64,000 nt of DNA from Phormidesmis priestleyi BC1401 (GTDB lineage Bacteria; Cyanobacteriota; Cyanobacteriia; Leptolyngbyales; Leptolyngbyaceae), in assembly GCF_001650195.1 (NCBI RefSeq), contig NZ_LXYR01000024.1, positions 1 through 64,000 on the forward strand, read 5' to 3'. This document shows, one piece after another, positions 6,838-47,854 of this stretch. Both the position numbers and the translations under genes were made by a program. Under the pieces are notes generated by a model, which was given only the letters and a program-made list of their open reading frames with translations, had not been told where the DNA came from and did no database searches. Numbering within the stretch: position 1 is the stretch's first letter; every line of letters starts with the position of its first letter.

Positions 6838-8046
6838 ATGCAGACGTGGCTCTCAGTGATTGGCATCGGTGAAGACGGACTCGCGGGATTAAGCCCGATC
6901 GCTCGTTCTCTGCTCGATCGGGCTGATGTGGTGGTTGGGGGCGATCGTCACCTTGCCATGCTGCCCAATAACGATCCGCGAGAACGGCTTTCTTGGGCTT
7001 CTCCGCTAGACGCAACCATTGACGAAATTCTGCGTCGTCGAGGACAGACCGTGTGTGTCTTGGCGAGTGGCGATCCGATGTGTCACGGCGTTGGCGTAAC
7101 GCTGACTCGTCGCATTCCCCTTGCAGAAATGACGATTGTTCCTGCGCCATCTGCGTTTAGTCTTGCCTGTGCCCGATTGGGTTGGTCGCTGGCAGAGGTT
7201 GAAACGTTTAGCCTCACCAATCGTCCGGTTTCCACGATCGCCACTGCCCTCTCTTCCGATGCCCGTTTATTAATTCTCAGTGCGAATAAAGATACCCCTG
7301 CCCATGTTGCAACCCTGCTAACTCAACGCGGATATGGTCACAGCAAAATAATCCTCCTAGAACATATGGGAGGCAGTCAAGAACGCCAAATCGAGGGCAT
7401 TGCTAACACCTGGAACCTTCAGGATGTGTCCGATTTAAACACGTTAGCGATCGTATGCAGCGCCGATCCAGGAACAGTTCCGCTGTCTCGCACGGTGGGT
7501 TTACCCGATGATGCTTATCACCACGATGGACAACTGACTAAACGTGAAGTCCGATCTGTCACCCTATCCACACTCGCGCCGTTGCCCGGAGAGTTGCTGT
7601 GGGATGTCGGCGCTGGCTGTGGCTCGATCTCGATCGAGTGGTTGCGAAGTCATCCTCGCTGTCGGGCGATCGCCATTGAGCGGCATCCAACTCGCCTACA
7701 AACGATCGCAGACAATGCATCGGCTCTGGGCGTTCCCCACCTTAAAATCGTCGCTGGAGATGCTCCCGAAGCCCTGCAAGACTTGCCTCAACCGGATGCT
7801 ATTTTTATCGGCGGAGGTGCCACTGCCGATCGGCTGCTCGATGTTTGTTGGAATGCGCTGCGTCCGGGAGGTCGGCTGGTGGTAAATGCGGTGACGATCG
7901 AGAGTGAACAGATCGTTTTGCACTATCACCGTTTATATGGCGGTGATTTAATTCGGATCGGCATTCAACGAGCAGACGCGATCGGAACGTTCTTAGGCTG
8001 GAAACCTCTGATCCCAGTGACTCAATGGAAGGCGATTAAACCTTGA
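6838..8046 (+). CDS. cobL: Precorrin-6Y C5,15-methyltransferase (CbiE-CbiT)
   Basis: 402-residue bifunctional enzyme adding methyl groups at C5 and C15 with decarboxylation of the C12 acetate. Residues about 1-205 are the CbiE tetrapyrrole methylase (VIGIGEDGLAGLSP, VLASGDPMCHGVG, VPAPSAFSLACARLG). Residues about 215-402 are the CbiT Rossmann methyltransferase (LWDVGAGCGSISIEW, IFIGGG). It is divergent from the cobG operon; the 234-base gap holds the riboswitch of the opposite strand and must contain this gene's promoter. No second B12 aptamer is seen on the plus strand. Confidence 0.94.
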   Translation: MQTWLSVIGIGEDGLAGLSPIARSLLDRADVVVGGDRHLAMLPNNDPRERLSWASPLDATIDEILRRRGQTVCVLASGDPMCHGVGVTLTRRIPLAEMTIVPAPSAFSLACARLGWSLAEVETFSLTNRPVSTIATALSSDARLLILSANKDTPAHVATLLTQRGYGHSKIILLEHMGGSQERQIEGIANTWNLQDVSDLNTLAIVCSADPGTVPLSRTVGLPDDAYHHDGQLTKREVRSVTLSTLAPLPGELLWDVGAGCGSISIEWLRSHPRCRAIAIERHPTRLQTIADNASALGVPHLKIVAGDAPEALQDLPQPDAIFIGGGATADRLLDVCWNALRPGGRLVVNAVTIESEQIVLHYHRLYGGDLIRIGIQRADAIGTFLGWKPLIPVTQWKAIKP

Positions 8047-8052
8047 TGACCG

Positions 8053-8138
8053 ACCCTCACCCCCAACCCCTCTCCCCAGGGAGAAGGGAGCCAGAACTCC
8101 TGTCCCCTCTCCTTTTGGGAGAGGGCTAGGGTGAGGGC
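8053..8138. repeat. Dispersed palindromic repeat (CCCTCACCC...GGGTGAGGG)
   Basis: Short imperfect inverted repeat beginning CCCTCACCC and ending GGGTGAGGG, with internal CTCTCC/GGAGAGG hairpins. Related copies occur at 31345-31450, 39681-39821 and 43724-43950. Elements of this look are common non-coding repeats in cyanobacterial genomes. It sits just after cobL and could act as a transcription end. Confidence 0.75.
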
Positions 8139-8181
8139 GAATTCCGCAAGCTATGTCCGAATTCAGCAACGCCGATGACGA

Positions 8182-11100
8182 TTACTTTAAAGGGGGAACT
8201 GCGTTGGAGCGCTGCACCAACTGAGCCACAGTTTTCACCAGTTCTTCTGGATCGACGGGTTTAGCAAGATGTTTTTGAAACCCAGCCGCGATCGCTTGCT
8301 GCTGGTCATATTCTCCCACGTAGGCAGTCAACGCAATAGCTGGCGTTTCGCGACCTTGTGACGTGACCCGCATCTGCCGCATCAAGCTATAGCCATCCAT
8401 ATCGGGCATTCCAATATCACTGATGATCAGATGTAGAACAGACTGTTCGATCGTTTGAAGTGCCTCAACGCCCGATGAAACCGCTGTGACGATCGCGGCT
8501 GCTTGCTCTAGCGCAAAGGCAACAAACTCGCGTGAGTCGGTGTCATCATCCACAACGAGAATATGAATGCCGTCTAAATCCAGCGTGAGTTCCGCTCCTG
8601 GTTCTGAAGTCACGCCTTCAATAGATCGAGACGCGATCGGAATCTGAACCGTAAACGTGGCTCCTTGTCCGTCGCCGTCGCTCTCTACTGCAACGTGCCC
8701 GCCGTGCATTTCGACGATTTGACGAGCGATCGCTAGCCCTAACCCCAACCCGCCAAACTTGCGAGTGGTGGCTCCATCTTCTTGACGGAAATGCTCAAAC
8801 ACATAGGGCAAAAACTGGGGGTTGATGCCTTTGCCTGTGTCTCTGACTTGGATTTGGGCGTTTGTTCCAACTTGAGATAACTCAACCGTAATTTGTCCGC
8901 CAGCAGGGGTAAACTTGACCGCATTCGACAAGAGATTCCACACGACTTGCTGCAAGCGTCCGGCATCGCCACCCACTAACCCAACAGACGGTGAGATTAG
9001 GGTTTGAGTCGAGAGAGACTTGGCTTCTGCGGCTAATCGAACAGTTTCGAGAGCGGCGGTGATGACATCGCTCAAATCTACGGGTGCGACTGTCAAAGAC
9101 AGCTTGCCGCTCAAAATTCGGGAGATGTCGAGCAAGTCATCAATGAGTTGGACTTGCAGTTTGGCGTTGCGCTCGATCGTCGCGATCGCGTCGGTTGTTT
9201 TTTCTGCATCCAGTCTTCCGGTTTGCAAGAGTTTTGACCAGCCCAAAATCGGGTTCATTGGGGTGCGTAGCTCGTGCGATAACACGGCTAGAAACTCGTC
9301 TTTGATGCGGTTAGCACTCTCGGCAGCTTCTCGTGCGGCTTGTTCTTGCTGCAAGAGTTGTTCTCGTTCGGCTTCATTGCGCTTGCGATCGCTGATGTCC
9401 TTGAACAGAATGGCGACTTTTCGGCTCTCTGGCTGCCCGATGCGATACGCATAAACATCAAACCAACGGTTCATCACTTCAGGGCGATCCTCAAAGCGAA
9501 TCGGTTCGCCCGTCAGAGCAACGTTGCCGTAAATCTCATACCAGTGATTTTCAAGACCTGGAGTTAGCTGACTCGCCGTTTTGCCGACTGCTTGTTCGAG
9601 TCCCGATTGTTTCTCAAACGCTGGATTGATTTCTAAAAAGCGGTAATCAATAGGCGTGTTGGTTTCATCAAACAGCACCTCAATAATGCAAAAGCCATGA
9701 TCGATCGACTCAAACAACGTTCGATAGCGGTCTTCAGATTGCTGTAAGGTTTCCTCGGCTTGTTTACGATCGGTCACTTCAACCGCAAAAACCGTCAGTC
9801 CATCCGGTGAAGGGTAAACTCGATACTCAAACCAGCGGTTCCAGGGCAGATAAACATACTCGAACTGGATGGGCGTTTGTTCACGCATTGCCCGATGGAA
9901 TTGAACATAGACATCGGTGTCAACAGCAGCAGGAAACAAGCTCCAGTTGTTATAGCCGAGCAGTTCTTCTCGCGGTTTTCCAGCCATTTCGCATAAGCGA
10001 TCGTTGACGTAGGTGTAACACCAGTTGCGATCGAAGACATAAAACCCATCATTAATGCTCGACAAGATGGTTTCAATGGTTTGCTTGGCGGCTTCTGCTT
10101 CCAGCCTGAGTGCCTGCTCTCGCTGCCCTGCTTCTCGCCGCAGTTGACTCAGCTTCAAACTTGCCTCGACTCGTGCTAGTAGTTCACGAGCAGAAAATGG
10201 CTTGGTCAAGTAGTCGTCGGCTCCTGCTTCGAGTCCTTCGACCCGCGCTTCTTCACCAGCCCGAGCAGATAGCAGCACGATCGGCAGATCTTGAGTGGCT
10301 GGATCATCTCGCAGTTGTTGCAATAGCCCGAACCCATCCAGTTTTGGCATCATCACATCGGTGAGCACCAGATCAGGCTTTTGTCGTCGAATTGCAGTCA
10401 AGGCAGCCAGTCCATCTGCCACCGTTTCAACGTCATAATGCTGACTCAATAGGCGCTTTATATAGTCGCGCACATCGGCGTTGTCGTCGGCTAAAAGAAT
10501 ACGAGCAGGAGACGTTTGAGTCAACGGCAACTCAGAACCCAAGCCTGAAAACTCAGAACTATCTTCTGGTATCCAACGCAAGGCTTCCTCAACAAAAGGT
10601 GCAGCCCTTAAAGCAGTAGACTGCTTTTGTTCTGTTTGGATGAGATCGAGGGGCAAATGAGCTTGACCGATCGGAATTGTCACCGTAAAGGTTGTGCCTT
10701 GCTCTAGCACACTAGAGACGCTGACGGAGCCACCCTGTAGTTTGACGAGTTCTTGCACGAGTGCAAGCCCAATGCCAGAGCCTTCATAGGTGCGCGAGCG
10801 GCTTCCACTGACGCGATGAAATCGTTCAAACAATCGAGGTAACTCAGTTTCGGGAATGCCTACGCCTGTATCTGCAACGCTGAATTCAACCGCATCCTCA
10901 ACAGCAATTAATCGAACCGTAATCTGTCCTACAAACGTAAACTTAAACGCATTTGAAATCAGATTGAGAACGATTTTTTCCCACATCTCGCGATCGACAT
11001 ACACCAATTCTGGCAGCGCTGGACACTCGATCGAGAATGTCATTCCTGCTCGTTCGATCAGAGAGCGAAACACACTCGCTAACTCTACGGTGAACGCTGC

Positions 11101-31568: not shown

Positions 31569-34500
31569 ATGTTCACTCGTGCCACGGCGCTTACTTCGCT
31601 AGAACTGAAGACTGCAATTATTCAAAATCCCTTAGTGGTTGCACCTAATACGATCGTGATAGATGCGATCGCCCAAATGAGCGGTGTGCGATCTCACGGC
31701 AACGCCCCTAGAACAGCAGATGGTCAATCAGACGACCTCCAAGAGGCGCGGTCTAGCTGCGTGGTTGTGGTGGAAGACGATCGAGTCGTTGGCATTTTGA
31801 CCGAGCGCGACGTGGTGCGCCTGAGCGCCCAGCAGCAACCCCTCGATCGCCGGGTGATGCGACAGGTGATGACCCATCCGGTTGCCACCCTGCGCGAGTC
31901 TGCCTTTAGCGATTTGTTTTTTGCCCTTAACCTGCTCCAGCACTACCACATTCGTCATTTGCCCATCTTAGATCAGCAGGATCGCCTAGTGGGGTTGGTG
32001 ACCCATAAGAGTTTGCTGCAAGCTCTCAACTCGCCAAGCCTACAGATGGTAGAGGGTTTGGAAGAAAAAATAGCGCACCTGGAGGCAGAAAATGTGGCTT
32101 TGCTAAAAAGTCATACCCTTGAGCTAGAGCAACAGGCGGCAGCCCGAACAACCGACCTCAAGACCAAAGCAGAACGGGAGAAATTACTCGCACTTGCCGC
32201 GCAGTTGCAGGAGGAACTGGCAGAACGGCAGCGGGCAGAGGTACTGAGTCAACACCAATTGGCAGAACTGACCAAATGGCGCGATCGCTATGAGTTAGCA
32301 GGGCAAGCAAGTGGGCAAATGCTCTATGAATACGATTTCATTCGTGATTTCATTACTTGGGGCGCAAACATAGAGCAAATCCTGGGCTACCCGTCTTCGG
32401 CATTACCGACCCATCTAGCGGGTTGGCGGGCTTTGGTTCATCCAGATGATCAGACGACACTTGACCTGTCAACCCAACAAGCCATTGCTGACAAAACTCC
32501 TTTTTTTGCCCAGTATCAAGTTCAGCATCAACTGGGGCATTACATCTGGATCGAAGATCGGAGTCAATGGCTGATTAACGACCAGGGCGAGACGATGGGC
32601 GTAATTGGCATGGTGGCTGACATTAGCGATCGCAAGCAAGCAGAAACTCGGCTGCGAGAGAGCGAACAGCGCTATGCCACCCTTGCGGCAACGGCTCCAG
32701 TGGGGATCTTTCGTACCGATGCTGTGGGCAACTACACCTATGTCAACGATCGCTGGTCTCAGATCACCGGGTTCGCTCTAAAAGCCGCTGTTGGAGAGGG
32801 ATGGCAACAAGCACTGCACCCCGACGACCACAGCCGAATTGTCGCTGAATGGTGTCAATCTACCCAAGAGAATCGCCCTTTTCGGCTTGAATACCGCTTC
32901 CAACGTCCTGACGGTGGGGTGACGTGGGTATATGGACAGTTTGTTGCCGAACGAGACGAGGTGGAAACAGTCATCGGCTATGTCGGCACAGTCACCGATA
33001 TTAGCGATCGTAAGCGATCGAAAGAGGCACTCCAAAAAAGTGAAGCCCATCAACGAGCTTTAGTGAGCGCCATCCCCGACTTGATCATCCGGATGAACCG
33101 AGCGGGGATACACCTAGAATTTGTAGCGACTCCCAACTTTCATGTATTGGGCAATCTGCTTGAGATGGTGGGAACCCATGTGTCTGATAGCTTACCTTTT
33201 GACATGGCGCAAAAACGCCTGAAATTTATTCAACTAACGCTACAAACGAATTCTATTCAAATTTATGAACAAGACTTCTCTATTGAAGGCAGAACGCAGT
33301 TTGAAGAGGTGCGGGTTGTTCCTTATGGCGAAGACGAAGTGATGGTTTTAGTGCGTGACATTAGCGATCGCAAGCAAGCCGAATTTGCCCTCAAGCAAAG
33401 CGAAGCCAAAAGCAAAGCCGTCTTAGCAGCCATTCCTGATCTGATGTTTCGGGTTGGGTCTGATGGGGTTTATCGCAGCTATGGCATCCCAAATCGGGAT
33501 TTTGATATGTTATCTCAAGACGCTGATCCCACAGGTCGATCGATGGCTGATATGCTGCCAGCAGAGCTTGTCGATCGCCAGTTGCACTATTTGCAGAAAG
33601 CCTTGCGGACGGGCGAGTTGCAGGTGTATGAGCAGCAAGTCCAAGTGGGCGATCGGCTTCAAGATGAAGAGGTTAGAGTCATCAAGAGTGGCGATGATGA
33701 GGTTCTCTTTATGACTCGCGATATTAGCGATCGCAAGCAGGCAGAAACTGCTCTGCGCTGCCTCATAGAAAGCACTGCCTCTGTCACAGGTAAAGACTTC
33801 TTCTCAACATTGGCGCAGCAGTTAATGCTGGCACTGAAGGTGCAACATGTCCTAGTGACTAAACTCGTGGGCGATCATCTGCAAACACTGGCATATTGGA
33901 AAGATGACGAGATGCAGCCAGAGATCACGTTTGCACTGGCAAATACCCCCTGCGGGACTAGCGCGATCGAACAAGGGCAGTTCCATTGTCCTACAGGGCT
34001 TCAACAACGCTTCTCTGAATATCCTCTCGTTCAGTCCTTGCAGGCGGACAGCTATCTGGGCATTCCGATTACAAGCACCAACGGTCAGCCACTAGGCTGT
34101 CTCTGCATTCTAGACAATAAGCCTATGGAAGATATTCAGTGGGCAGAGGCGTTTTTACGCATCTTTGCAACGAGAGCAGCCGCAGAGTTAGAACGGCAGC
34201 AAGCCACTGAATCGTTGGAACAACTGAACCAGGAGTTAGAAGATCGGGTAGAACAACGCACATCCGCTCTCCGCAGCAGCGAAGCAACCCTGAGTGCCTT
34301 CTTTGACCAGGCAGCAGTTGGCATGAATTTGGCAACCCCGGATGGACAGTATGTAAAGGTCAACCAAAAACTGTGTGACATTCTAGGCTACACCCAGGAA
34401 GAGTTGTTGACTAAGAATTTCAAGGATATTTTCCATCCAGAAGAGGAAGACAGGGCGCAAGCAGAACGGCAGCAACTGTATGCTGGAGCCATCGATTCCT

Positions 34501-37500
34501 TTTCCATCGAAAGGCGCTACTTGCACAAAGACGGTAGTGCAGTTTGGATCAGTCTCACGGTCTCTTTAATCTACAAGCCATCCGGTGAACCAAATTATTC
34601 GATCGGAGTGGTGGAGGAGATTGGCGATCGCAAACGAGCAGAAGAAGCGTTACAACAGAGCGAAGAAAAGTTTCGTCAGATTGCCGAACATATTCAGAGC
34701 GTTTTCTGGGTGAGTAGTGCCGATTACAGCGAGACCATCTATGTTAGCCCTGCCTATGAGACAATTTGGGGACGCTCCTGCAACTCGCTTTACGCTTTGC
34801 CGCAGTCCTTTACCGATGCAGTCCACCCCAAAGACCAGACGCGGATTTTGGCGCTTCTTGCAGAGCGAATGGAGGGATATGACGAGGAGTATCGTATTCT
34901 TCAGCCCGATGGAACATTGCGTTGGATTCACGATCGCGCCTTCCCCATCCATAACGCCCAAGGAGAAGTCTATCGTCTCGCTGGGATTGCAGAAGATATC
35001 ACCGATCGCAAGCAAGCCGAAGAAACCCTCAATCGCCAGTTAGCTTTGATCGAAGCCTCGATCGACGGCATTGTCATGCTCAACACTAACGGCGAATACA
35101 CCTACTTAAACGAAGCCCAGGTCAAACTATTTGGCTATGACTGTGCTGAAGAACTCCTGGGTAAACCCTGGCAAACGCTTTGTTCGCCAGCCGAGATGAG
35201 CCGCTTTAAACAAGATATTTTTCCCGTATTAGTTGAAACGCGGGCTTGGCGTGGAGAAGCGATCGCAATTCGACGCGATGGCAGCACCTTCGACAATGAA
35301 GTGTCTCTCACCCTCACCCCCACTGGAGAAGCGATTTGTGTTTGTCGTGATATCAGCGATCGTAGACAAGCAGAGTTAGAAATCATCCGCAACCGCGATC
35401 TACGAGAAGCCATTTTTAACGAATCAGCCGATGCAATCTTTTTGGTGAATGTAGAACCCTCAATCACGCTCGACTGCAATCGTCGTGCCGTAGAGTTGTT
35501 TGAAGCGTCTGGCAAAGACGAGTTGTTGTACATCGAAGGTCATATGCTACAACGCCATCAGTTTACAGAGGAAGAACTGAAGTTAATTTCTCAAGAGATA
35601 AAAGATAAGGGCTTTTGGAGCTGCGAAGTCGAATATATCACCCGTAAAGGCAACCCGTTTTGGGGTAACCTAGCAGCAAAGCGAATTAGTATCGCAGGGC
35701 GGGTAATGAATTTGGTGCGAGTGACAGATATCAGCAAGCGAAAGCAGTCAGAACTGTTGTTGAAAGCGCAGCAGGAGTTTCTCCGTCGTCTCATTGATAC
35801 CGTTCCCAATCTGATTTTTGTGAAAGACTGGCAAGGGCGATTTACGCTGGTAAATCAGGCAACTGCCAATGTCTACCAATCTACAATCGCAGACCTAATT
35901 AGCAAAACAGATGCCGATTTCCATTCAAACACAAAAGAAGTTGAGCAATTTTTGGCAGTCGATCTAGAGGTGATGACCACAATGACTACAAAGGTTTTAG
36001 AAGAAACAGTTACCTCTCCTGACGGAAAACAGTTCTATTTTCAAACCATCAAGACCCCGATCGTGTCTGCGGATGGGCACTCTAGAGAGATTTTGGGAGT
36101 CGCAACCGATATTAGCGATCGCAGACAAATAGAAGAACAACTGCGTAGAAGCGAAGCCTACCTGCTTGAAGCGCAGCGCATTGCCCACGTTGGAAGCTGG
36201 GAGTTTGACCTGGCAACCCAAAAAATTACTTGGTCAGCCGAGACCTTTCGGATGTTTGGACGTGATTCTGCACAGCAGGAGCCAACCTATAAAGAACTGA
36301 TGCAGTCCATTCATAGCGACGATCGCGATCGTTACAAAGCAATTTTGCGACGGACGATCAAGCAAGTGCAGCCATTTGAACTAGAGAATCGAGTGCTGCG
36401 ACCCGATAATTCTATGGTTTATGTGCTGGTAAAAGGGCAGCCCATCCTAGATGAAACGGGCAAGCTTCTCAGTTTTCTGGGCACCGTTTTAGACATCACA
36501 AGCCGCAAACAGTCTGAGGAGCAGTTGCGGCAAACCAACGAGCAACTTGCCCGCACGACTCGCCTCAAAGATGAATTCCTCGCCAACATGAGCCACGAAC
36601 TCCGCACTCCCCTCAACGCCATCTTGGGCATGACTGAGGGACTGCAAGATCGCGTCTTTGGCACGATCAATGAGCGACAGATCAAAGCCCTACAAACCAT
36701 CGAGCGCAGCGGCTCCCATTTGCTAGAGCTAATCAATGACATTCTTGACATCGCTAAAATTGAGTCGGGTCAGTTAGAGCTAGACTGCACCCCCACCGCC
36801 GTGATTTTACTTTGCCAATCGAGTCTGGCGTTTGTCAGCCAACAAGCGCTAAAAAAACGCATCCAGATAGAGATTAAACTGCCCCCCAATCTACCCAACT
36901 TGTCGGTGGATGGACGACGCATCCGCCAAGTTTTGATTAACCTGGTTGACAATGCGGTCAAGTTTACCCCAGACGAAGGACGCATCACTCTAAAAGTCAG
37001 CCATCAGCAGACCCCTGCCGACCTAGAATCCGCCGATTCCTCACCCCAAAATTTCCTGCGAATTGCGGTCATTGATACGGGCATTGGCATTGCCTCAGAA
37101 GATATCAACAAACTGTTTCAGCCCTTTGTCCAGATCGATAGCGCCCTCAACCGCCAATATCAGGGCACAGGCTTGGGGCTTGCCCTAGTGAAACGCATCG
37201 TCGAACTCCACGGAGGGCAAGTAGGGCTAACCAGCGAGGTGGGGGTGGGAAGCTGCTTCACGATCGACCTTCCCTGTGCTGCGGTGCCATTCTCTCCGGG
37301 GCTAGAAACCCAGCTAAAACCCGACACTGCACCGAGCCAGCGAGCAGAGGCACCCCCCTTAATCTTGCTTGCAGAAGACAACGAAGCCAATACCATGACG
37401 CTTTTGAGCTACCTAAAAGCAAACGGCTATCAGGTTCTTTTAGCAAAAAACGGACAGGAGGCAGTCGCCCTAGCTCAGTCTGAGACCCCTGATTTGATTT

Positions 37501-37718
37501 TGATGGATATTCAAATGCCAGGGATGGATGGGTTAGAAGCCATGCAGCAGATCCGCCGCGAGCCAACCCTGGTCGATGTGCCTATCATTGCTCTTACTGC
37601 CCTTGCTATGACGAGCGATCGTGAGCGTTGTCTCGCCGCCGGAGCCAGTGACTACCTCAGCAAACCGATTCAGCTCAGGCAGTTGGTCACCACGATTCAA
37701 CAGCTTTTAGCCTCATAG
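31569..37718 (+). CDS. Giant hybrid histidine kinase: CBS pair, about 10 PAS, GAF, HK, REC
   Basis: 2049-residue soluble sensor. A CBS pair (about 10-155; ILTERDVVRLS, HIRHLPILDQQDRLVGLVTH) is followed by a coiled coil (about 160-235). PAS domains are separated by repeated DISDRKQAE-type linkers; ten linkers and ten PAS domains were counted. A GAF domain follows the fourth PAS. HisKA has MSHELRTPLN (His about 1676), then HATPase (G1 box DTGIGIAS) and a C-terminal receiver with MDIQMPGMDG (Asp about 1980). CBS domains could sense adenine nucleotides. No membrane helices. Nine bases separate its stop from a REC-GGDEF-EAL gene, its likely partner. Confidence 0.93.
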   Translation: MFTRATALTSLELKTAIIQNPLVVAPNTIVIDAIAQMSGVRSHGNAPRTADGQSDDLQEARSSCVVVVEDDRVVGILTERDVVRLSAQQQPLDRRVMRQVMTHPVATLRESAFSDLFFALNLLQHYHIRHLPILDQQDRLVGLVTHKSLLQALNSPSLQMVEGLEEKIAHLEAENVALLKSHTLELEQQAAARTTDLKTKAEREKLLALAAQLQEELAERQRAEVLSQHQLAELTKWRDRYELAGQASGQMLYEYDFIRDFITWGANIEQILGYPSSALPTHLAGWRALVHPDDQTTLDLSTQQAIADKTPFFAQYQVQHQLGHYIWIEDRSQWLINDQGETMGVIGMVADISDRKQAETRLRESEQRYATLAATAPVGIFRTDAVGNYTYVNDRWSQITGFALKAAVGEGWQQALHPDDHSRIVAEWCQSTQENRPFRLEYRFQRPDGGVTWVYGQFVAERDEVETVIGYVGTVTDISDRKRSKEALQKSEAHQRALVSAIPDLIIRMNRAGIHLEFVATPNFHVLGNLLEMVGTHVSDSLPFDMAQKRLKFIQLTLQTNSIQIYEQDFSIEGRTQFEEVRVVPYGEDEVMVLVRDISDRKQAEFALKQSEAKSKAVLAAIPDLMFRVGSDGVYRSYGIPNRDFDMLSQDADPTGRSMADMLPAELVDRQLHYLQKALRTGELQVYEQQVQVGDRLQDEEVRVIKSGDDEVLFMTRDISDRKQAETALRCLIESTASVTGKDFFSTLAQQLMLALKVQHVLVTKLVGDHLQTLAYWKDDEMQPEITFALANTPCGTSAIEQGQFHCPTGLQQRFSEYPLVQSLQADSYLGIPITSTNGQPLGCLCILDNKPMEDIQWAEAFLRIFATRAAAELERQQATESLEQLNQELEDRVEQRTSALRSSEATLSAFFDQAAVGMNLATPDGQYVKVNQKLCDILGYTQEELLTKNFKDIFHPEEEDRAQAERQQLYAGAIDSFSIERRYLHKDGSAVWISLTVSLIYKPSGEPNYSIGVVEEIGDRKRAEEALQQSEEKFRQIAEHIQSVFWVSSADYSETIYVSPAYETIWGRSCNSLYALPQSFTDAVHPKDQTRILALLAERMEGYDEEYRILQPDGTLRWIHDRAFPIHNAQGEVYRLAGIAEDITDRKQAEETLNRQLALIEASIDGIVMLNTNGEYTYLNEAQVKLFGYDCAEELLGKPWQTLCSPAEMSRFKQDIFPVLVETRAWRGEAIAIRRDGSTFDNEVSLTLTPTGEAICVCRDISDRRQAELEIIRNRDLREAIFNESADAIFLVNVEPSITLDCNRRAVELFEASGKDELLYIEGHMLQRHQFTEEELKLISQEIKDKGFWSCEVEYITRKGNPFWGNLAAKRISIAGRVMNLVRVTDISKRKQSELLLKAQQEFLRRLIDTVPNLIFVKDWQGRFTLVNQATANVYQSTIADLISKTDADFHSNTKEVEQFLAVDLEVMTTMTTKVLEETVTSPDGKQFYFQTIKTPIVSADGHSREILGVATDISDRRQIEEQLRRSEAYLLEAQRIAHVGSWEFDLATQKITWSAETFRMFGRDSAQQEPTYKELMQSIHSDDRDRYKAILRRTIKQVQPFELENRVLRPDNSMVYVLVKGQPILDETGKLLSFLGTVLDITSRKQSEEQLRQTNEQLARTTRLKDEFLANMSHELRTPLNAILGMTEGLQDRVFGTINERQIKALQTIERSGSHLLELINDILDIAKIESGQLELDCTPTAVILLCQSSLAFVSQQALKKRIQIEIKLPPNLPNLSVDGRRIRQVLINLVDNAVKFTPDEGRITLKVSHQQTPADLESADSSPQNFLRIAVIDTGIGIASEDINKLFQPFVQIDSALNRQYQGTGLGLALVKRIVELHGGQVGLTSEVGVGSCFTIDLPCAAVPFSPGLETQLKPDTAPSQRAEAPPLILLAEDNEANTMTLLSYLKANGYQVLLAKNGQEAVALAQSETPDLILMDIQMPGMDGLEAMQQIRREPTLVDVPIIALTALAMTSDRERCLAAGASDYLSKPIQLRQLVTTIQQLLAS

Positions 37719-39680: not shown

Positions 39681-39821
39681 CTTCTTGTAAAAGTCCGAAG
39701 ATGCCCTCATCCCCCAACCCCTTCTCCCAAGTTTGGAAGAAGGGGAGCCAGATTTCAAAGTCCCTCTCCCACACTTGGGAGAGGGATTTAGGGTGAGGGC
39801 AGGGACTTTTGCAAGAGGTCT
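39681..39821. repeat. Dispersed repeat, left of the flotillin gene
   Basis: The right end reads GGGTGAGGGC then AGGGACTTTTGCAAGAGGTC; the left end is a decayed inverse (CTTCTTGTAAAAGTCC, GCCCTCATCC). Internal CTCTCCCA/TGGGAGAG stems. The right end is the exact inverse of the left end of the element at 43724. Confidence 0.7.
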
Positions 39822-39901
39822 AATTAAGATTGGCTGCTGGCGGAAAACCCGCTGTTAGAATGGTAGCTATAGGAGCCTTCTCTCTACACCGGGCTAAACT
39901 T

Positions 39902-41899
39902 ATGAAAAACTCGATCGGTCTGCGTCAGCTTTTGCCCATGACTCTCTCTTTGCTAGCGGCTGCAACCACGACTGGAGCGATCGCTGCAACTCCTCCAACG
40001 ACTACTTCGCAATCGCGTGAACAGTCGGTACAGACGCAGAACGTGCAGTTGATGCAAATTCCAGGGGTAGATTTGCCCGTCTGGATTTATCCGGTAGGTG
40101 GCGTAATTCTGCTGCTGATATTTTTGCCAAAAATTGGTTGGATTGCTGGGCTGATCGTGATTGGTGAGCGAGAAGTGGGCATCGTAACCAAAAAATTCTC
40201 GTCGAAAAGTCTGCCGCCTAATCGACTGATTGCTACCAATGGCGAAGCCGGACTGCAAGCCGATACGCTGCCTCCTGGCTGGCACTTTGGTTACTTCCCC
40301 TGGCAATATAACGTCAGCCACACGTCTGTGATTACGATTCCTCAAGGCGAGATTGGGCTGTTAGTGGCAAACGATGGCGCAACTATTCCGCCCGATCGTA
40401 TTCTAGGCAGAGTTGTAGAGTGCGACAACTACCAGGATGCCCGCAAGTTCTTCGCCAATGGGGGTGAAAAAGGACGACAGCTTGCCATTTTGACATCGGG
40501 AACTTACCGAATCAACACGGCTTTATTTGAAGTGATCACGGCGGCGAATGCATCCCAGCACGAGATGCAGCCCAACCAACTGCGGATCTACACGATCGCG
40601 CCCGATAGCGTAGGAGTAGTGACTGCGCTAGATGGTGCCCCGATCGATGCGGGTGAGATTGCCGGACCGATCATCGCCGACCACGACAACTTTCAGAGAG
40701 CCGATCGCTTTGTGCAAGATGGAGGACGGCGCGGACTGCAAGAGCAAGTCATGCTGTCTGGCTCGTGGAATTTAAATCCGTGGTTTGTGCAGACCCAACA
40801 GGTGCCGATGACTCAGGTGCCGATCGGCTATGTCGGGGTCGTGATTTCATTTGTGGGCAAGTCGCATCAAGATGTCAGCGGCGATTCCTTCACTCACGGC
40901 AATTTGGTGAACAAAGGCGATAAAGGCGTATGGGTTGAGCCACTCTATCCGGGTAAGCATCCGCTCAACACCCAGATCATGAAGGTGGAACCTGTGCCGA
41001 CCACCAATATTGTTCTGAACTTCACCAGCCGCTTTAGTGGAGAACACGGCTATGATTCTAAGCTGATTGCGCTAAAGCTGCTGTCGTTTGACGGCTTTGA
41101 GTTTGAGCTAGAGGTGTTTCAGATTATTCATGTTGGTGCAGCCGATGCGCCCAAAGTCATTTCGCGGTTGGGTTCGATGCAAAACCTGGTCGATCATGTG
41201 CTGCGTCCGATCGTGGGCAACTACTTCCGCAACTCTGCCCAAGAATATACGATTCTAGACTTTCTCACTGCCCGAAGTGAACGACAAGCCGAAGCCGCAG
41301 AATATGTGCGGCAGGCACTTCGCGCTTATGATGTGCAAGCGGTAGATACGCTGATTGGACTGATTACGCCGCCCCGCGAACTGATGCAAACCCTCACCGA
41401 TCGCAAAATTGCCGAGGAGCAGCAGAAAACCTACGATGTGCAGCGCGTTGCTCAAACTCAACGGCAAGAATTGGTGCGAGAAACAGCGTTGGCAAACATC
41501 CAAGACCAGATCATCACCGCTCAAGAAGGCGTAACGATCGCCCAACTGCAAGCGTCTGCCGCAGTCAAACAGGCGAACGGAGAAGCCGAAGCGATTCGCG
41601 TCACAGGACAAGCCAAAGCCGATGCTTATCAGGCGGGGGTGAGTTCTCTAGGGGCACAGGCTTATACGGCACTGCAACTGATGCAGGTGATTGGCGATCG
41701 CAATGTGCGGGTGGTTCCTGATGTCTCGGTGAGCGGCAGCAACAGTTCTGGCTTGTTGGATGGCTTGATGAGTATGATGCTGTGGAACCAATCGAATGGC
41801 AATTCCATCACGACAATTCCCAATGGCAACGGCAAAGTAGAGTCGAGCGATCCAGTGTCGGCGATCGTGCCTTCATCAGAGCATGACTCCAATCTCTGA
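39902..41899 (+). CDS. Flotillin-like SPFH/band 7 protein with signal peptide
   Basis: 665 residues. A basic N terminus plus hydrophobic stretch (1-about 28, ending AIAA) looks like a signal peptide. A second membrane segment (about 65-90, WIYPVGGVILLLIFLPKIGW) precedes the SPFH domain (about 95-480; REVGIVTKKF, LPPGWHFGYFPWQYNV). A coiled-coil region rich in Glu, Ala and Gln (about 500-605) precedes a disordered tail. The ATG at 39902 is chosen over 39830, whose first 24 residues precede the signal peptide and overlap the repeat. Its last 17 bases overlap the next gene, implying coupled expression. Family members scaffold membrane microdomains. Confidence 0.85.
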   Translation: MKNSIGLRQLLPMTLSLLAAATTTGAIAATPPTTTSQSREQSVQTQNVQLMQIPGVDLPVWIYPVGGVILLLIFLPKIGWIAGLIVIGEREVGIVTKKFSSKSLPPNRLIATNGEAGLQADTLPPGWHFGYFPWQYNVSHTSVITIPQGEIGLLVANDGATIPPDRILGRVVECDNYQDARKFFANGGEKGRQLAILTSGTYRINTALFEVITAANASQHEMQPNQLRIYTIAPDSVGVVTALDGAPIDAGEIAGPIIADHDNFQRADRFVQDGGRRGLQEQVMLSGSWNLNPWFVQTQQVPMTQVPIGYVGVVISFVGKSHQDVSGDSFTHGNLVNKGDKGVWVEPLYPGKHPLNTQIMKVEPVPTTNIVLNFTSRFSGEHGYDSKLIALKLLSFDGFEFELEVFQIIHVGAADAPKVISRLGSMQNLVDHVLRPIVGNYFRNSAQEYTILDFLTARSERQAEAAEYVRQALRAYDVQAVDTLIGLITPPRELMQTLTDRKIAEEQQKTYDVQRVAQTQRQELVRETALANIQDQIITAQEGVTIAQLQASAAVKQANGEAEAIRVTGQAKADAYQAGVSSLGAQAYTALQLMQVIGDRNVRVVPDVSVSGSNSSGLLDGLMSMMLWNQSNGNSITTIPNGNGKVESSDPVSAIVPSSEHDSNL

Positions 41900-43709
41900 T
41901 TACTACTGCTTTAATCCCAGTTGTTCAGCACCAAGTCATCTAACAACAAACTGTCAGCAGTGTGGTGCGCTGCTGCAACTGGGACGCTACTACGCCATCA
42001 AGCGATTGGGGCAGGGGAAATTTAGCCGCACGTTTCTGGCAATTTGCTCTACGGACTCTGAGGGGAACAAATCAGACGGCTCAACTCAATATGTGATTCA
42101 ACAATGCTGGGACAATTGCGTTGATACAGTCCTAATCGCTAAACTGCGAACAATTGGACACCATCCCCAACTGCCCACAGTGGTGGATTACTTTGAGCAA
42201 GACGGCATTTACTATTTGGTGCAAGACTATGTTGATGGCGAGAGTTTAGATAGAGCGATCGCCGCCAAAGGGCAGTTCACTCCAGCGCAGGTATGGCAGG
42301 TTTTGGAGTCTATGCTGCCGATTCTGCATTGGATTCACGCTCATGGGATGATTCACCGCGATCTCAAACCCGAAAATATTATTTACAGCAAGTCAGAATT
42401 CAGATTGGTGGGCGCTGCGATTTTCAACGCCGATACTCCACAATCTGCGATCGGCAGCGCCGAGTATGCCGCACCTGAACAACTTCGAGGCGAGGCGGTA
42501 TTTGCCAGCGACCTCTGCAGCTTGGGCGTTATCTGCATTCACCTACTAACGGGCGTGCAGCCGTTTCACCTGTTCGATACAACCGAAAATCACTGGGTGT
42601 GGCGCACCTACTGGCTATCCACCGCTGCATCTTCTGAGAAGTATCCTGATCGCTTGGCTCAAATTCTCGATCGCTTAATTGCCCCCAACCCCGATCAGCG
42701 ATTTGCATCTGCTGCGGCAGCGATCGCGACGATCGAGCAGATTCGAGGCAAAAAAATCCCGATTCCGACTCCGGCACCTCTGATCACTTGGCAAAATACG
42801 GCGACATTAACGGGTCACGAAGGACTGTTTGCCAGCGTCACAGCAGTTGCAGTCTCGCCCGATCGTCGCTATGTCGCCAGCGCCAGCGAAGACAAAACCG
42901 TGCGGTTGTGGAATCTAGACACAGGCAAACAAATTCTGGTACTGCGAGGACACAGCCAATTTGTGCAAGCCGTAGCATTTCATCCGCAGCAGTCAAATTG
43001 GCTAATCAGTGCGGGGCGCGATCGTCAGATCAAATTTTGGGATTGGATCACTCAGCAGCAGCTCCGCACCCTTGCAGGACATACCCAGCAAATTCACGCG
43101 ATCGCCTTCAGCCCTGATGGAACGCTGATTGCCAGCGGCAGTGCCGATAAGACTCTAAAGGTGTGGACTCTAGACGGTGAAATCATCTCTACTTTTCTAG
43201 GGCATCGCCTAGCGGTGAACGCAGTTGCCTTTCACCCCGTCGCCCCTCGGATCGCCAGCGCCAGTGCAGATACTACGATTCGTCTTTGGCATCTCGACGG
43301 TAAACTCGATCGCACGTTGACAAGACATACTCAGGCAGTCAGAGCGATCGCGTTTAGCCCCACAGGTCAATTTCTTGCCAGTGGCGGTGAAGATAAAACC
43401 ATTTGCCTTTGGGAGGTTGCCTCTGGTCAATGTTGTCGAGTTTTACCGGGGCATTCTTGGTCGATTTCTTCCCTAGTGTTTGCCACAGACCGCATCTTAA
43501 TCAGTGGGAGTTGGGATCAAACCATCAAAGTGTGGCAGTGGGACACAGGCGAGGAAATCGCGAGATTGGTGGGGCACACTGATTCGATTTCTAGCTTGGC
43601 ACTGCAACTCGGTGAACCGATGAACAACATGACCGTCCACCCGCTAGAAAACGCTGTCCTGATAAGCGGGAGTCGAGATAAAACAATTAAACGCTGGCAG
43701 TTCTTCTAG
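41883..43709 (+). CDS. Zn-ribbon pseudokinase with seven-blade WD40 propeller
   Basis: 608 residues. N-terminal CX4C...CX2C ribbon (about 8-30), a Ser/Thr kinase-like domain (about 35-285) and seven WD40 repeats (about 305-608), enough for one propeller. The glycine loop LGQGKFSR, HRDLKPEN and APE motif are kept. The beta-3 lysine is replaced (YVIQQ in place of VIK), and the DFG motif is lost: LVDFGAA reads LVGAA, missing exactly DF. This indicates a pseudokinase. It overlaps the flotillin gene by 17 bases, so it may act as a membrane-domain scaffold or signalling partner; this is inference. Confidence 0.9.
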   Translation: MTPISDYYCFNPSCSAPSHLTTNCQQCGALLQLGRYYAIKRLGQGKFSRTFLAICSTDSEGNKSDGSTQYVIQQCWDNCVDTVLIAKLRTIGHHPQLPTVVDYFEQDGIYYLVQDYVDGESLDRAIAAKGQFTPAQVWQVLESMLPILHWIHAHGMIHRDLKPENIIYSKSEFRLVGAAIFNADTPQSAIGSAEYAAPEQLRGEAVFASDLCSLGVICIHLLTGVQPFHLFDTTENHWVWRTYWLSTAASSEKYPDRLAQILDRLIAPNPDQRFASAAAAIATIEQIRGKKIPIPTPAPLITWQNTATLTGHEGLFASVTAVAVSPDRRYVASASEDKTVRLWNLDTGKQILVLRGHSQFVQAVAFHPQQSNWLISAGRDRQIKFWDWITQQQLRTLAGHTQQIHAIAFSPDGTLIASGSADKTLKVWTLDGEIISTFLGHRLAVNAVAFHPVAPRIASASADTTIRLWHLDGKLDRTLTRHTQAVRAIAFSPTGQFLASGGEDKTICLWEVASGQCCRVLPGHSWSISSLVFATDRILISGSWDQTIKVWQWDTGEEIARLVGHTDSISSLALQLGEPMNNMTVHPLENAVLISGSRDKTIKRWQFF

Positions 43710-43723
43710 GGCGTGTCATCAAT

Positions 43724-43950
43724 AGACCTCTTGCAAAAGTCCCTGCCCTCACCCTAAATCCCTCTCCCAAGTGTGGGAGAGGGATTTTGAAATCCGGCTC
43801 CCTTCTCTCTCCTAAGCTTGGCAGAAGGAAGCCCTCCCCAGCCCTTCTCCACAAGGAGAAGGGAGCCAGAGAGTCAAAGTCCCTCTCCCCAAGGAGAGGG
43901 ATTTAGGGTGAGGGCAGACTCTCTGCATCTCACAAGTTAATTAGGATTGC
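43724..43950. repeat. Dispersed repeat, right of the pseudokinase gene
   Basis: It begins AGACCTCTTGCAAAAGTCCC then TGCCCTCACCC, contains several CTCTCCC/GGGAGAG stems, and ends GGGTGAGGGCAGA followed by AGTTAATTAGGATTGC. It is longer than the copy at 39681 and probably a nested or doubled element. It fills the 252-base gap between two converging genes. Confidence 0.7.
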
Positions 43951-45778: not shown

Positions 45779-46003
45779 ATTCCCTAAATTTCAAATGGCT
45801 TAAATTACAATTAAATTTTTTCCAAAATTGGTAGAATTGTATTACTGTAGTCTGTTGGAACTATACGCATTGAGTGAACGAAAGTCTTTCTTGTAGCGCT
45901 GCCCATAGCGCACTTACACTCTTTATGGTAGGATATAGTGCTACATAGTCTACTACTTACAAATTTGACTGAAGATCTATTTCAGTCTAAAAGGTTTAAT
46001 CAT

Positions 46004-47854
46004 ATGGTGGAAGCAGCACTAGAACTTTTTGACACTGAGAAGATAATTGTTCGGGATTTGGGGTCAATAGATCAAGATGATCCTCAAGCCTGGGAGAACA
46101 AGATTATTTTCAGCGACTGCTTAGAAGCATTACAAAAGATGCCATCTGAAAGTGTCGATTTGATAATAACCTCGCCTCCATACGCTGATAGTCGAAAAAA
46201 AACCTATGGTGGAATTTCTCCAGATGAATATCCTGACTGGTTTCTTGCAAGAGCTTTAGAGCTGAAAAGAGTTTTAAAGCCAGAAGGTTCTTTTATTCTT
46301 AACATTAAAGAAAAAGTTGTTAACGGCGAGAGACATCCCTATGTATTGCGTTTAATTTTAGGGATGCAGAATCAAGGATGGTTATGGACTGAGGAATACA
46401 TATGGCACAAAAAAAACAGTTACCCTGGCAAATGGTCTAATCGTTTTCGTGACTCTTGGGAGCGCTGTTTGCACTTCAATAAGCAAAAAAAGTTCAAAAT
46501 GTACCAGGAGACCGTTATGGTTCCTATGGGCGATTGGGCTAAGTCACGCCTCAAGAAATTAAGTGAAACTGATAAAAAACGTGATAATTCTAAAGTAGAG
46601 AGTGGGTTTGGCAAGAACATCTCGAATTGGTTGGGGCGTACTACAGCTTATCCAACTAACGTTCTACATTTAGCAACGGAATGTGGAAACAAAAATCATA
46701 GTGCCGCATTTCCTAAATCTCTTCCATCCTGGTTTATTAAGTTGTTTACCGAACCAGGCGATGTCGTACTCGATCCTTTTCTTGGTTCTGGAACATCTTG
46801 CATAGTAGCCAAAGAATTGGGTAGAACCTATATAGGTATTGAAGTAAAAGAGGAATATTGCAACCTTTCAGTCTTCAACATTGGGCAAGCAAAGGTTGAT
46901 GCTCAGACTGTAAGCTATGCCATTGAAGATGACAATTCTCAGTTAGGAGATAGCGTTTCTATGTCTAATTCAATCTACCAAGTCTATTATGACTATCTAG
47001 CAGAGAATGTTCTTACTCCTTTTTATGAAAAGAGATTTGAGAAATTAAGAAAGCTAAAACTCCAGGATGTTTTAAGACGCAAAAATCCGTATTTGTTCAA
47101 AGCGAAAAATATAGAGTTAGCCGGAGACTTCGTGAAGAGTATTGTTGATGCTTATCTCTCTTCGCAAGAAGAAACCATTTTTGGAAATTTGCTAGAAGAT
47201 TTTGCAATATTTGTATCATCGAGATTGCACAAAGGCTTCAAGTCTAGCTTAAAGAGTGTTGACTTAGAGTTTGAGAGAAACGGTTGTTATTACATAGTGG
47301 GAATTAAGTCTGGAACTAATTGGGGCAATTCTGACCAAATTAACAGAATGAAAGACAACTTCAGAAAAGCCAGGAAAATTTTACATGAGCGTGGAGTACA
47401 TCAAGAAATCGTTGCTGTCAACGGCTGTATGTATGGGAAAGACAATAATCCCTTGAAAGATAAGAAACTGCTCAACAAGAAATTTGTAGATGAAGAGCCA
47501 GATAAAATTTATTACAAACGTGCTGGTCAAGACTTCTGGGAATTTATATCTGGAGATGAGGATCTCTATCAGGAAATAATTGTACCGATTGATAAAGAAG
47601 CAAAGAGAAAGGATGAGTTGTTCAGAGCCACCTATGTTGCAAAAGTTAATGAAATGACATCGGACTTTGATTGTTACTTTATGACTAACTATCAGATTGA
47701 TTGGGTCAAACTTGTGGACTATGTATCTAAGCGAGGTGAGGTTCTCCTAAAGCCTTCGCAAAACCAAATGATCTTGACATTAGAGGAAGGCTCTGATTCC
47801 GAGGAAGTCTTGGATTTGTCCGATGCTCTAGATTTTGAAGAATTTGAGGATTAA
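46004..47854 (+). CDS. DNA methyltransferase fused to a restriction-endonuclease-like domain
   Basis: 616 residues from the ATG at 46004 (a GTG at 45938 would add 22). Residues about 30-310 are a beta-class amino-methyltransferase: catalytic TSPPYADSRKK comes first and the SAM motif DPFLGSGTSCIVAKELG later. TSPPY fits either N4-cytosine or N6-adenine methylation. The C-terminal half (about 340-590) resembles PmeII-type endonucleases, with a GNLLEDFAIFV helix and YYIVGIKSGTNWGNSDQ, where Lys of GIK would be catalytic. One chain would then be a whole restriction-modification system. AT-rich compared with neighbours and flanked by two copies of an amidohydrolase 3' end, so probably acquired. Confidence 0.85.
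   Translation: MVEAALELFDTEKIIVRDLGSIDQDDPQAWENKIIFSDCLEALQKMPSESVDLIITSPPYADSRKKTYGGISPDEYPDWFLARALELKRVLKPEGSFILNIKEKVVNGERHPYVLRLILGMQNQGWLWTEEYIWHKKNSYPGKWSNRFRDSWERCLHFNKQKKFKMYQETVMVPMGDWAKSRLKKLSETDKKRDNSKVESGFGKNISNWLGRTTAYPTNVLHLATECGNKNHSAAFPKSLPSWFIKLFTEPGDVVLDPFLGSGTSCIVAKELGRTYIGIEVKEEYCNLSVFNIGQAKVDAQTVSYAIEDDNSQLGDSVSMSNSIYQVYYDYLAENVLTPFYEKRFEKLRKLKLQDVLRRKNPYLFKAKNIELAGDFVKSIVDAYLSSQEETIFGNLLEDFAIFVSSRLHKGFKSSLKSVDLEFERNGCYYIVGIKSGTNWGNSDQINRMKDNFRKARKILHERGVHQEIVAVNGCMYGKDNNPLKDKKLLNKKFVDEEPDKIYYKRAGQDFWEFISGDEDLYQEIIVPIDKEAKRKDELFRATYVAKVNEMTSDFDCYFMTNYQIDWVKLVDYVSKRGEVLLKPSQNQMILTLEEGSDSEEVLDLSDALDFEEFED

What the first reader, a model, noticed from the sequence alone, without database searches (positions are those of the whole stretch)
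39902..43709. Flotillin-like protein translationally coupled to a WD40 pseudokinase
A signal-peptide SPFH protein overlaps by 17 bases a zinc-ribbon, kinase-like, seven-blade WD40 protein. The kinase has lost both the beta-3 lysine (Gln) and exactly the DF of DFG, while HRDLKPEN survives. The overlap suggests a fixed complex in which a dead kinase and a propeller act as a scaffold at flotillin membrane domains. The sequence facts are direct; the complex is inference.
Basis: partly seen in the sequence, partly recalled or inferred. Interest (0 to 1): 0.65.

Follow-up and report, generated by a model that had tools for sequence, protein, structure and literature searches.

The report
SPFH membrane-scaffold gene with dead-kinase partner
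In many cyanobacteria a gene for a membrane-ring (SPFH) protein sits next to a kinase–propeller gene whose catalytic residues have been lost several separate times while the rest was kept, which suggests that the pair works as a scaffold and no longer needs the enzyme activity.

Summary
An SPFH protein (39902-41899) overlaps by 17 bases a zinc-ribbon/kinase-like/seven-bladed WD40 protein (41883-43709). The β3 Lys is Gln, DF of DFG is deleted, HRDLKPEN is intact, and the αC Glu is also gone. The pair is conserved: 43 of 108 distinct cyanobacterial SPFH loci with enough downstream sequence carry a same-strand kinase(-WD40) gene next to the SPFH gene. These kinases form one group (100/98) apart from unpaired relatives, and their distances track those of the SPFH partner (r = 0.90). 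All 66 nearest unpaired relatives keep β3 Lys, HRD and DxG; only 13 of 43 paired ones keep the Lys. It was lost repeatedly (at least three times; AU p = 0.0016), and some loci lost the whole N-lobe. Six paired kinases are fully canonical, so the partner began as an active kinase. The DF deletion is unique to this window. In Nostocales the pseudokinase domain is under purifying selection (dN/dS about 0.19). Best reading: a kinase-derived adaptor on a membrane SPFH ring, catalysis dispensable. Not supported: 'flotillin' in the strict sense, and overlap as a fixed feature (3 of 43). A physical complex is inferred, not shown.

The parts
39902..41899 (+). SPFH protein, 665 aa
   Evidence: ORF; Band_7 E=2.9e-23; relatives at 60-77% identity across Cyanobacteria
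39902..39988 (+). signal-peptide-like N-terminus (aa 1-29)
   Evidence: sequence; hydropathy maximum 1.5 at aa 10; inference
40073..40165 (+). transmembrane segment (aa ~58-88)
   Evidence: hydropathy maximum 2.5 at aa 69; helices 62-81 in the model
40166..40813 (+). extra N-terminal beta domains before the SPFH domain (aa ~89-304)
   Evidence: conserved in A1; vault (MVP) chains align from aa 71-85 on, Z 9-10.6; low-confidence model
40814..41461 (+). Band_7/SPFH domain (aa 305-520)
   Evidence: Z 12-15 to prohibitin, erlin, HflK/C, QmcA
41375..41647 (+). long C-terminal helix (aa 492-582)
   Evidence: model
41883..41899 (+). 17-base overlap of the two ORFs
41883..43709 (+). zinc-ribbon / pseudokinase / WD40 protein, 608 aa
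41907..41963 (+). four-Cys zinc ribbon (C9, C14, C24, C27)
   Evidence: sequence; Cys conserved in 66/66 unpaired relatives
41985..42737 (+). kinase-like domain (aa 35-285)
   Evidence: Pkinase E=5.4e-29; model
42099..42101 (+). beta-3 Lys position = Gln73
   Evidence: K in 66/66 unpaired relatives
42132..42134 (+). alpha-C Glu position = Leu84 in an ungapped reading
42354..42377 (+). HRDLKPEN catalytic loop, intact
42408..42413 (+). DFG site with DF deleted (V176-G177)
42471..42479 (+). APE motif, intact
42789..43703 (+). seven-bladed WD40 propeller (aa 303-607)
39743..39829 (+). left arm of an 87-nt dispersed repeat bracketing the pair
43716..43802 (-). right, inverted arm of the same repeat (94% complementary)

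Best explanation
The two genes encode a membrane-anchored SPFH oligomer and its dedicated cytoplasmic adaptor. An ancestral active zinc-ribbon/kinase/WD40 protein became the neighbour of the SPFH gene once (shown: single group in the tree). It then travelled with it (shown: correlated distances) and lost catalytic residues repeatedly, while keeping the C-lobe core and the propeller (shown). The window protein is one of these pseudokinases. Inferred: the kinase C-lobe and/or zinc ribbon docks on the cytoplasmic SPFH ring and the propeller recruits or positions client proteins, so the protein works as a scaffold and phosphotransfer is no longer needed. Topology (N-terminus out, SPFH domain and tail in the cytoplasm) is inferred from the signal-like N-terminus plus one transmembrane segment.
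For: 43 of 108 informative loci carry the pair. Paired kinases are one side of a branch, 100/98, in 100% of 200 bootstrap trees. SPFH-kinase distance correlation 0.90, 0 of 1000 permutations. Beta-3 Lys in 66/66 unpaired relatives against 13/43 paired; at least 3 changes on the tree, single-clade tree rejected with p-AU 0.0016. N-lobe lost in L099, L117, L120, L158 and largely in L166, with C-lobe and WD40 kept. Structural C-lobe residues APE, D210, G215, W240, R273 kept in 32/32 altered and 5/5 truncated proteins. Purifying selection on the pseudokinase N-lobe and catalytic loop in 13 Nostocales loci: median dN/dS 0.19. Confident kinase plus propeller model.
Against: No direct evidence of binding. 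Gaps between the genes reach 1.3 kb and most pairs do not overlap. 65 of 108 SPFH loci have no kinase within 2 kb downstream, so the SPFH protein can do without it. Six pairs keep a canonical kinase. No dN/dS could be measured for the window gene itself (closest paired kinase about 50% identical).
Confidence: 0.6

Rival explanations
1. The genes are neighbours with shared regulation, and the kinase-like protein acts elsewhere; there is no direct SPFH complex.
For: Variable gaps and insertions between the genes; the SPFH gene often stands alone.
Against: Single origin of the pairing, kept over much of the class, with correlated distances; no ortholog of the paired type was seen away from an SPFH gene among the unpaired hits placed in the tree, although the search scored at most 8 candidates per genome.
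Confidence: 0.2
2. The protein is still an ATP-binding or active kinase that uses a displaced lysine (as in WNK) or another chemistry.
For: HRD and Asn are kept in most altered members; in Nostocales the Lys-Glu pair became Gln-Lys (20 of 43), which looks like remodelling; Asp of DFG is kept in 29 of 32 altered members.
Against: The window lacks beta-3 Lys, alpha-C Glu and DFG Asp together; the glycine-loop lysines do not sit at the WNK position (comparison from my own knowledge); relatives lost the whole N-lobe.
Confidence: 0.13
3. The kinase gene is simply decaying.
For: Remnants exist next to SPFH in L091 (N-terminal part) and L089 (WD40 piece); in the window this cannot be tested by dN/dS.
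Against: Long open frames in 43 loci; dN/dS 0.19-0.27 in Nostocales; C-lobe core invariant.
Confidence: 0.07

Closest known systems
QmcA-YbbJ (SPFH-NfeD pair; PDB 8z5g)
   Same: SPFH ring protein with a dedicated neighbouring-gene partner; the only SPFH chain of the PDB found by sequence or profile
   Different: The partner here is a kinase-derived WD40 protein, not NfeD; the SPFH protein has extra N-terminal beta domains
Cyanobacterial WD40 Ser/Thr kinases (cbSTKII, PMC2176072)
   Same: Kinase plus WD40 architecture as in the unpaired relatives; that survey flagged Ava_3867 (WD40) as deviating from canonical motifs
   Different: Unpaired relatives here keep all catalytic motifs; that survey does not mention band 7 or pseudokinases
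Published bacterial pseudokinase families (PMC12599244: ActPs1-3, GLW, CP1, DYD, DLHK)
   Same: Bacterial Ser/Thr pseudokinases; CP1 also shows variable motif loss in cyanobacteria
   Different: CP1 is linked to a COG3899 ATPase domain, not WD40; no WD40 or SPFH in that review
Flotillins (YuaG; flotillin complex 9bq2, 9l3g)
   Same: SPFH domain and long C-terminal helix
   Different: Lower fold score (Z about 11) than prohibitin/erlin (about 15), no NfeD neighbour
Major vault protein
   Same: Model aligns from N-terminal beta domains through the SPFH-like shoulder (aa 71-540, Z 10.6)
   Different: Membrane-anchored, fewer repeats, no vault Pfam match; low-confidence model

Membership tests
SPFH / Band 7 superfamily | SPFH domain followed by a helical tail, N-terminal membrane segment | tested here: met
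   Band_7 2.9e-23, Z 12-15 to SPFH complexes, hydropathy
Flotillin (SPFH2) | NfeD-type partner gene | tested here: not met
   Downstream neighbour is a kinase-WD40 gene, upstream a receiver-GGDEF-EAL gene
Flotillin (SPFH2) | flotillin-specific C-terminal domain | tested here: inconclusive
   Only Band_7 found by Pfam at E up to 10; fold search ranks flotillin below other SPFH proteins
Active Hanks-type kinase | beta-3 Lys | tested here: not met
   Gln73
Active Hanks-type kinase | DFG Asp | tested here: not met
   DF deleted
Active Hanks-type kinase | HRD Asp and catalytic-loop Asn | tested here: met
   HRDLKPEN
Pseudokinase | kinase fold with loss of catalytic residues | tested here: met
Pseudokinase | absence of phosphotransfer | not testable with these tools
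   needs an assay
CP1 bacterial pseudokinases | linked COG3899 ATPase domain | tested here: not met
   Protein holds zinc ribbon, kinase and WD40 only; definition from PMC12599244
WD40 beta-propeller | closed seven-bladed propeller | tested here: met

The most novel reading that the evidence does not exclude
The paired pseudokinases are not just scaffolds: the concerted change of the Lys-Glu pair to Gln-Lys in Nostocales marks a remodelled, non-catalytic ligand pocket that senses a nucleotide or other ligand and gates a vault-like, membrane-anchored SPFH cage.
Probability: 0.1. Interest if true: 0.8.

Novelty: new variant of a known kind. Interest (0 to 1): 0.58.

Why it matters
SPFH proteins are widespread, and the partner known from their conserved operons is NfeD (PMC2636767). 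A kinase-derived partner that lost catalysis repeatedly in this setting, and not among its nearest unpaired relatives, gives a graded natural series: active kinase, Lys-less kinase, DFG-less kinase, C-lobe plus propeller. With that series one can test what a bacterial pseudokinase does for a membrane scaffold and which part of the kinase fold is the indispensable one.

Tried and rejected
Flotillin filing: dropped (no NfeD, weaker fold match). Translational coupling as a general feature: dropped (overlap in 3 of 43). Lost residues as one fixed signature: dropped (DF deletion unique; beta-3 loss repeated). WNK-like lysine rescue: positions do not fit, kept only as a rival. Mobile cassette bracketed by inverted repeats: the repeat has dozens of copies in the genome (66 match segments), and the same-genus genome G288 lacks the SPFH gene and has unrelated DNA beside the shared lipase gene, so movement is possible but not shown. 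The SPFH structure model is weak (pLDDT 58); the vault similarity is therefore only a lead. One script failed on a file path. Paper searches found no description of an SPFH-kinase-WD40 pair, within the held open-access library only.

Full report
Observation. The window lies in a cyanobacterial genome (G000, contig C24). ORFs 39902-41899 and 41883-43709 on the + strand overlap by 17 bases. The first has Band_7 at aa 305-520; the second has a four-Cys zinc ribbon (sequence), a Pkinase domain and WD40 repeats. The second protein models confidently as a kinase fold plus a closed seven-bladed propeller. In the kinase part beta-3 is YVIQQ, the catalytic loop HRDLKPEN, the DFG site FRLV--GAA; the alpha-C Glu is missing as well.

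Gene pair. The SPFH family occurs in 52 of 291 sampled genomes of the class, and 396 relatives were found in the species-level genome collection, of which 80 were fetched. After removal of duplicates, 108 loci had enough downstream sequence, and 43 of them have a same-strand kinase(-WD40) gene within 2 kb after the SPFH gene. Three more have it 2.4-2.9 kb away (L081, L159, L190), and L091 and L089 hold remnants. Median gap is 131 bases; only three overlap, so the overlap is not the conserved feature.

History. Paired kinases are one side of a branch against unpaired zinc-ribbon kinases (97; 100/98 and all bootstrap trees). SPFH and kinase distances correlate at 0.90 over 38 pairs. The SPFH tree splits into two groups (the window's, and the one with Nostocales and the canonical kinases) and the presence of the neighbour changes many times on it. 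The simplest reading is one ancient pairing followed by joint inheritance and repeated loss of the kinase.

Erosion. In the 66 nearest unpaired relatives, beta-3 Lys, HRD Asp and DxG are present in all. In the pairs, beta-3 Lys survives in 13 of 43. It is Gln across nearly all Nostocales pairs and in the window, Arg in L071, and five proteins lack most or all of the N-lobe. Holding all Lys-less rows together is rejected (p-AU 0.0016), so loss was repeated. Six proteins (L087, L094, L095, L096, L102, L197) are fully canonical. L152, L163 and L174 have Gln with DFG intact, which suggests that in Nostocales the Lys went before DFG. The alpha-C Glu changed to Lys together with beta-3 Lys to Gln in 20 pairs. 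The deletion of exactly DF is unique to the window. Substitutions such as HGD or DFS alone should not be over-read, since cyanobacterial kinases vary at HRD Arg and DFG Gly (PMC2176072). Degenerate kinases of other families also exist: two or three of about 22 kinase proteins in the window's own genome. The unpaired set was chosen by similarity to the window protein, which could favour intact kinases. Tree length is about 16 for paired and about 27 for unpaired rows (derived), so the contrast is not due to a longer paired history.

Selection. Over 13 Nostocales pseudokinases median dN/dS is 0.19 for the N-lobe and catalytic loop, 0.25 for the C-lobe, 0.27 for WD40 and 0.10 for the SPFH protein. 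The domain is kept, not decaying. C-lobe structural residues (APE, D210, G215, W240, R273) are invariant even in truncated members. This points to the C-lobe and propeller as the needed part.

SPFH protein. Sequence and profile searches find only QmcA among SPFH chains of the PDB. The model, though weak (pLDDT 58), matches prohibitin, erlin, HflK/C, QmcA and, over a longer stretch including N-terminal beta domains, the major vault protein; flotillin ranks lower. 'SPFH protein' is the safe name.

Mechanism. Shown: conserved pair, joint inheritance, repeated loss of catalytic residues, retained fold under selection (in Nostocales). Inferred: cytoplasmic docking on an SPFH ring and client recruitment by the propeller.

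Novelty. SPFH operon partners described in the 2009 survey are NfeD proteins (PMC2636767, no mention of kinases), and the bacterial pseudokinase review has no WD40 or SPFH-linked family (PMC12599244). Searches in the held library found no account of this pair. I rate it a new variant of a known kind.

Noticed in passing
39743-39829 and 43716-43802: 87-nt inverted copies (94%) of a dispersed repeat with dozens of genomic copies (66 match segments) bracket the gene pair.
   Followed up: partly
L070 (SPFH ORF 7149-9497, minus strand), C-terminal end: This SPFH protein ends in what looks like a ribosomal L7/L12 C-terminal domain (one member of A1 matches Pfam Ribosomal_L12 at 1.3e-07; assigned to L070 by reading its sequence).
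   Followed up: no
L104 (6181-8451, plus strand): A distant SPFH relative carries its own C-terminal zinc ribbon (sequence), a module otherwise found on the kinase partner.
   Followed up: no
L067 4854-6311 and L068 4836-6293: SPFH genes without the downstream partner have instead a different 485-aa kinase without WD40 just upstream; the L067 copy keeps its catalytic motifs.
   Followed up: partly
L180 and other Nostocales loci, beta-3 and alpha-C positions: Concerted Lys-to-Gln and Glu-to-Lys change of the kinase salt bridge in 20 paired proteins.
   Followed up: partly
L262, L265 (own genome): Further degenerate kinases of other families in the same genome (HRN with GFG; Glu at beta-3).
   Followed up: no
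window 31569-37718: Giant 2049-aa ORF with CBS-like, many PAS-like, histidine-kinase and receiver regions, followed by a receiver-GGDEF-EAL protein (read from the translation).
   Followed up: no
window 45938-47854: DNA methyltransferase-like protein with a C-terminal extension that may be a nuclease (read from the translation).
   Followed up: no
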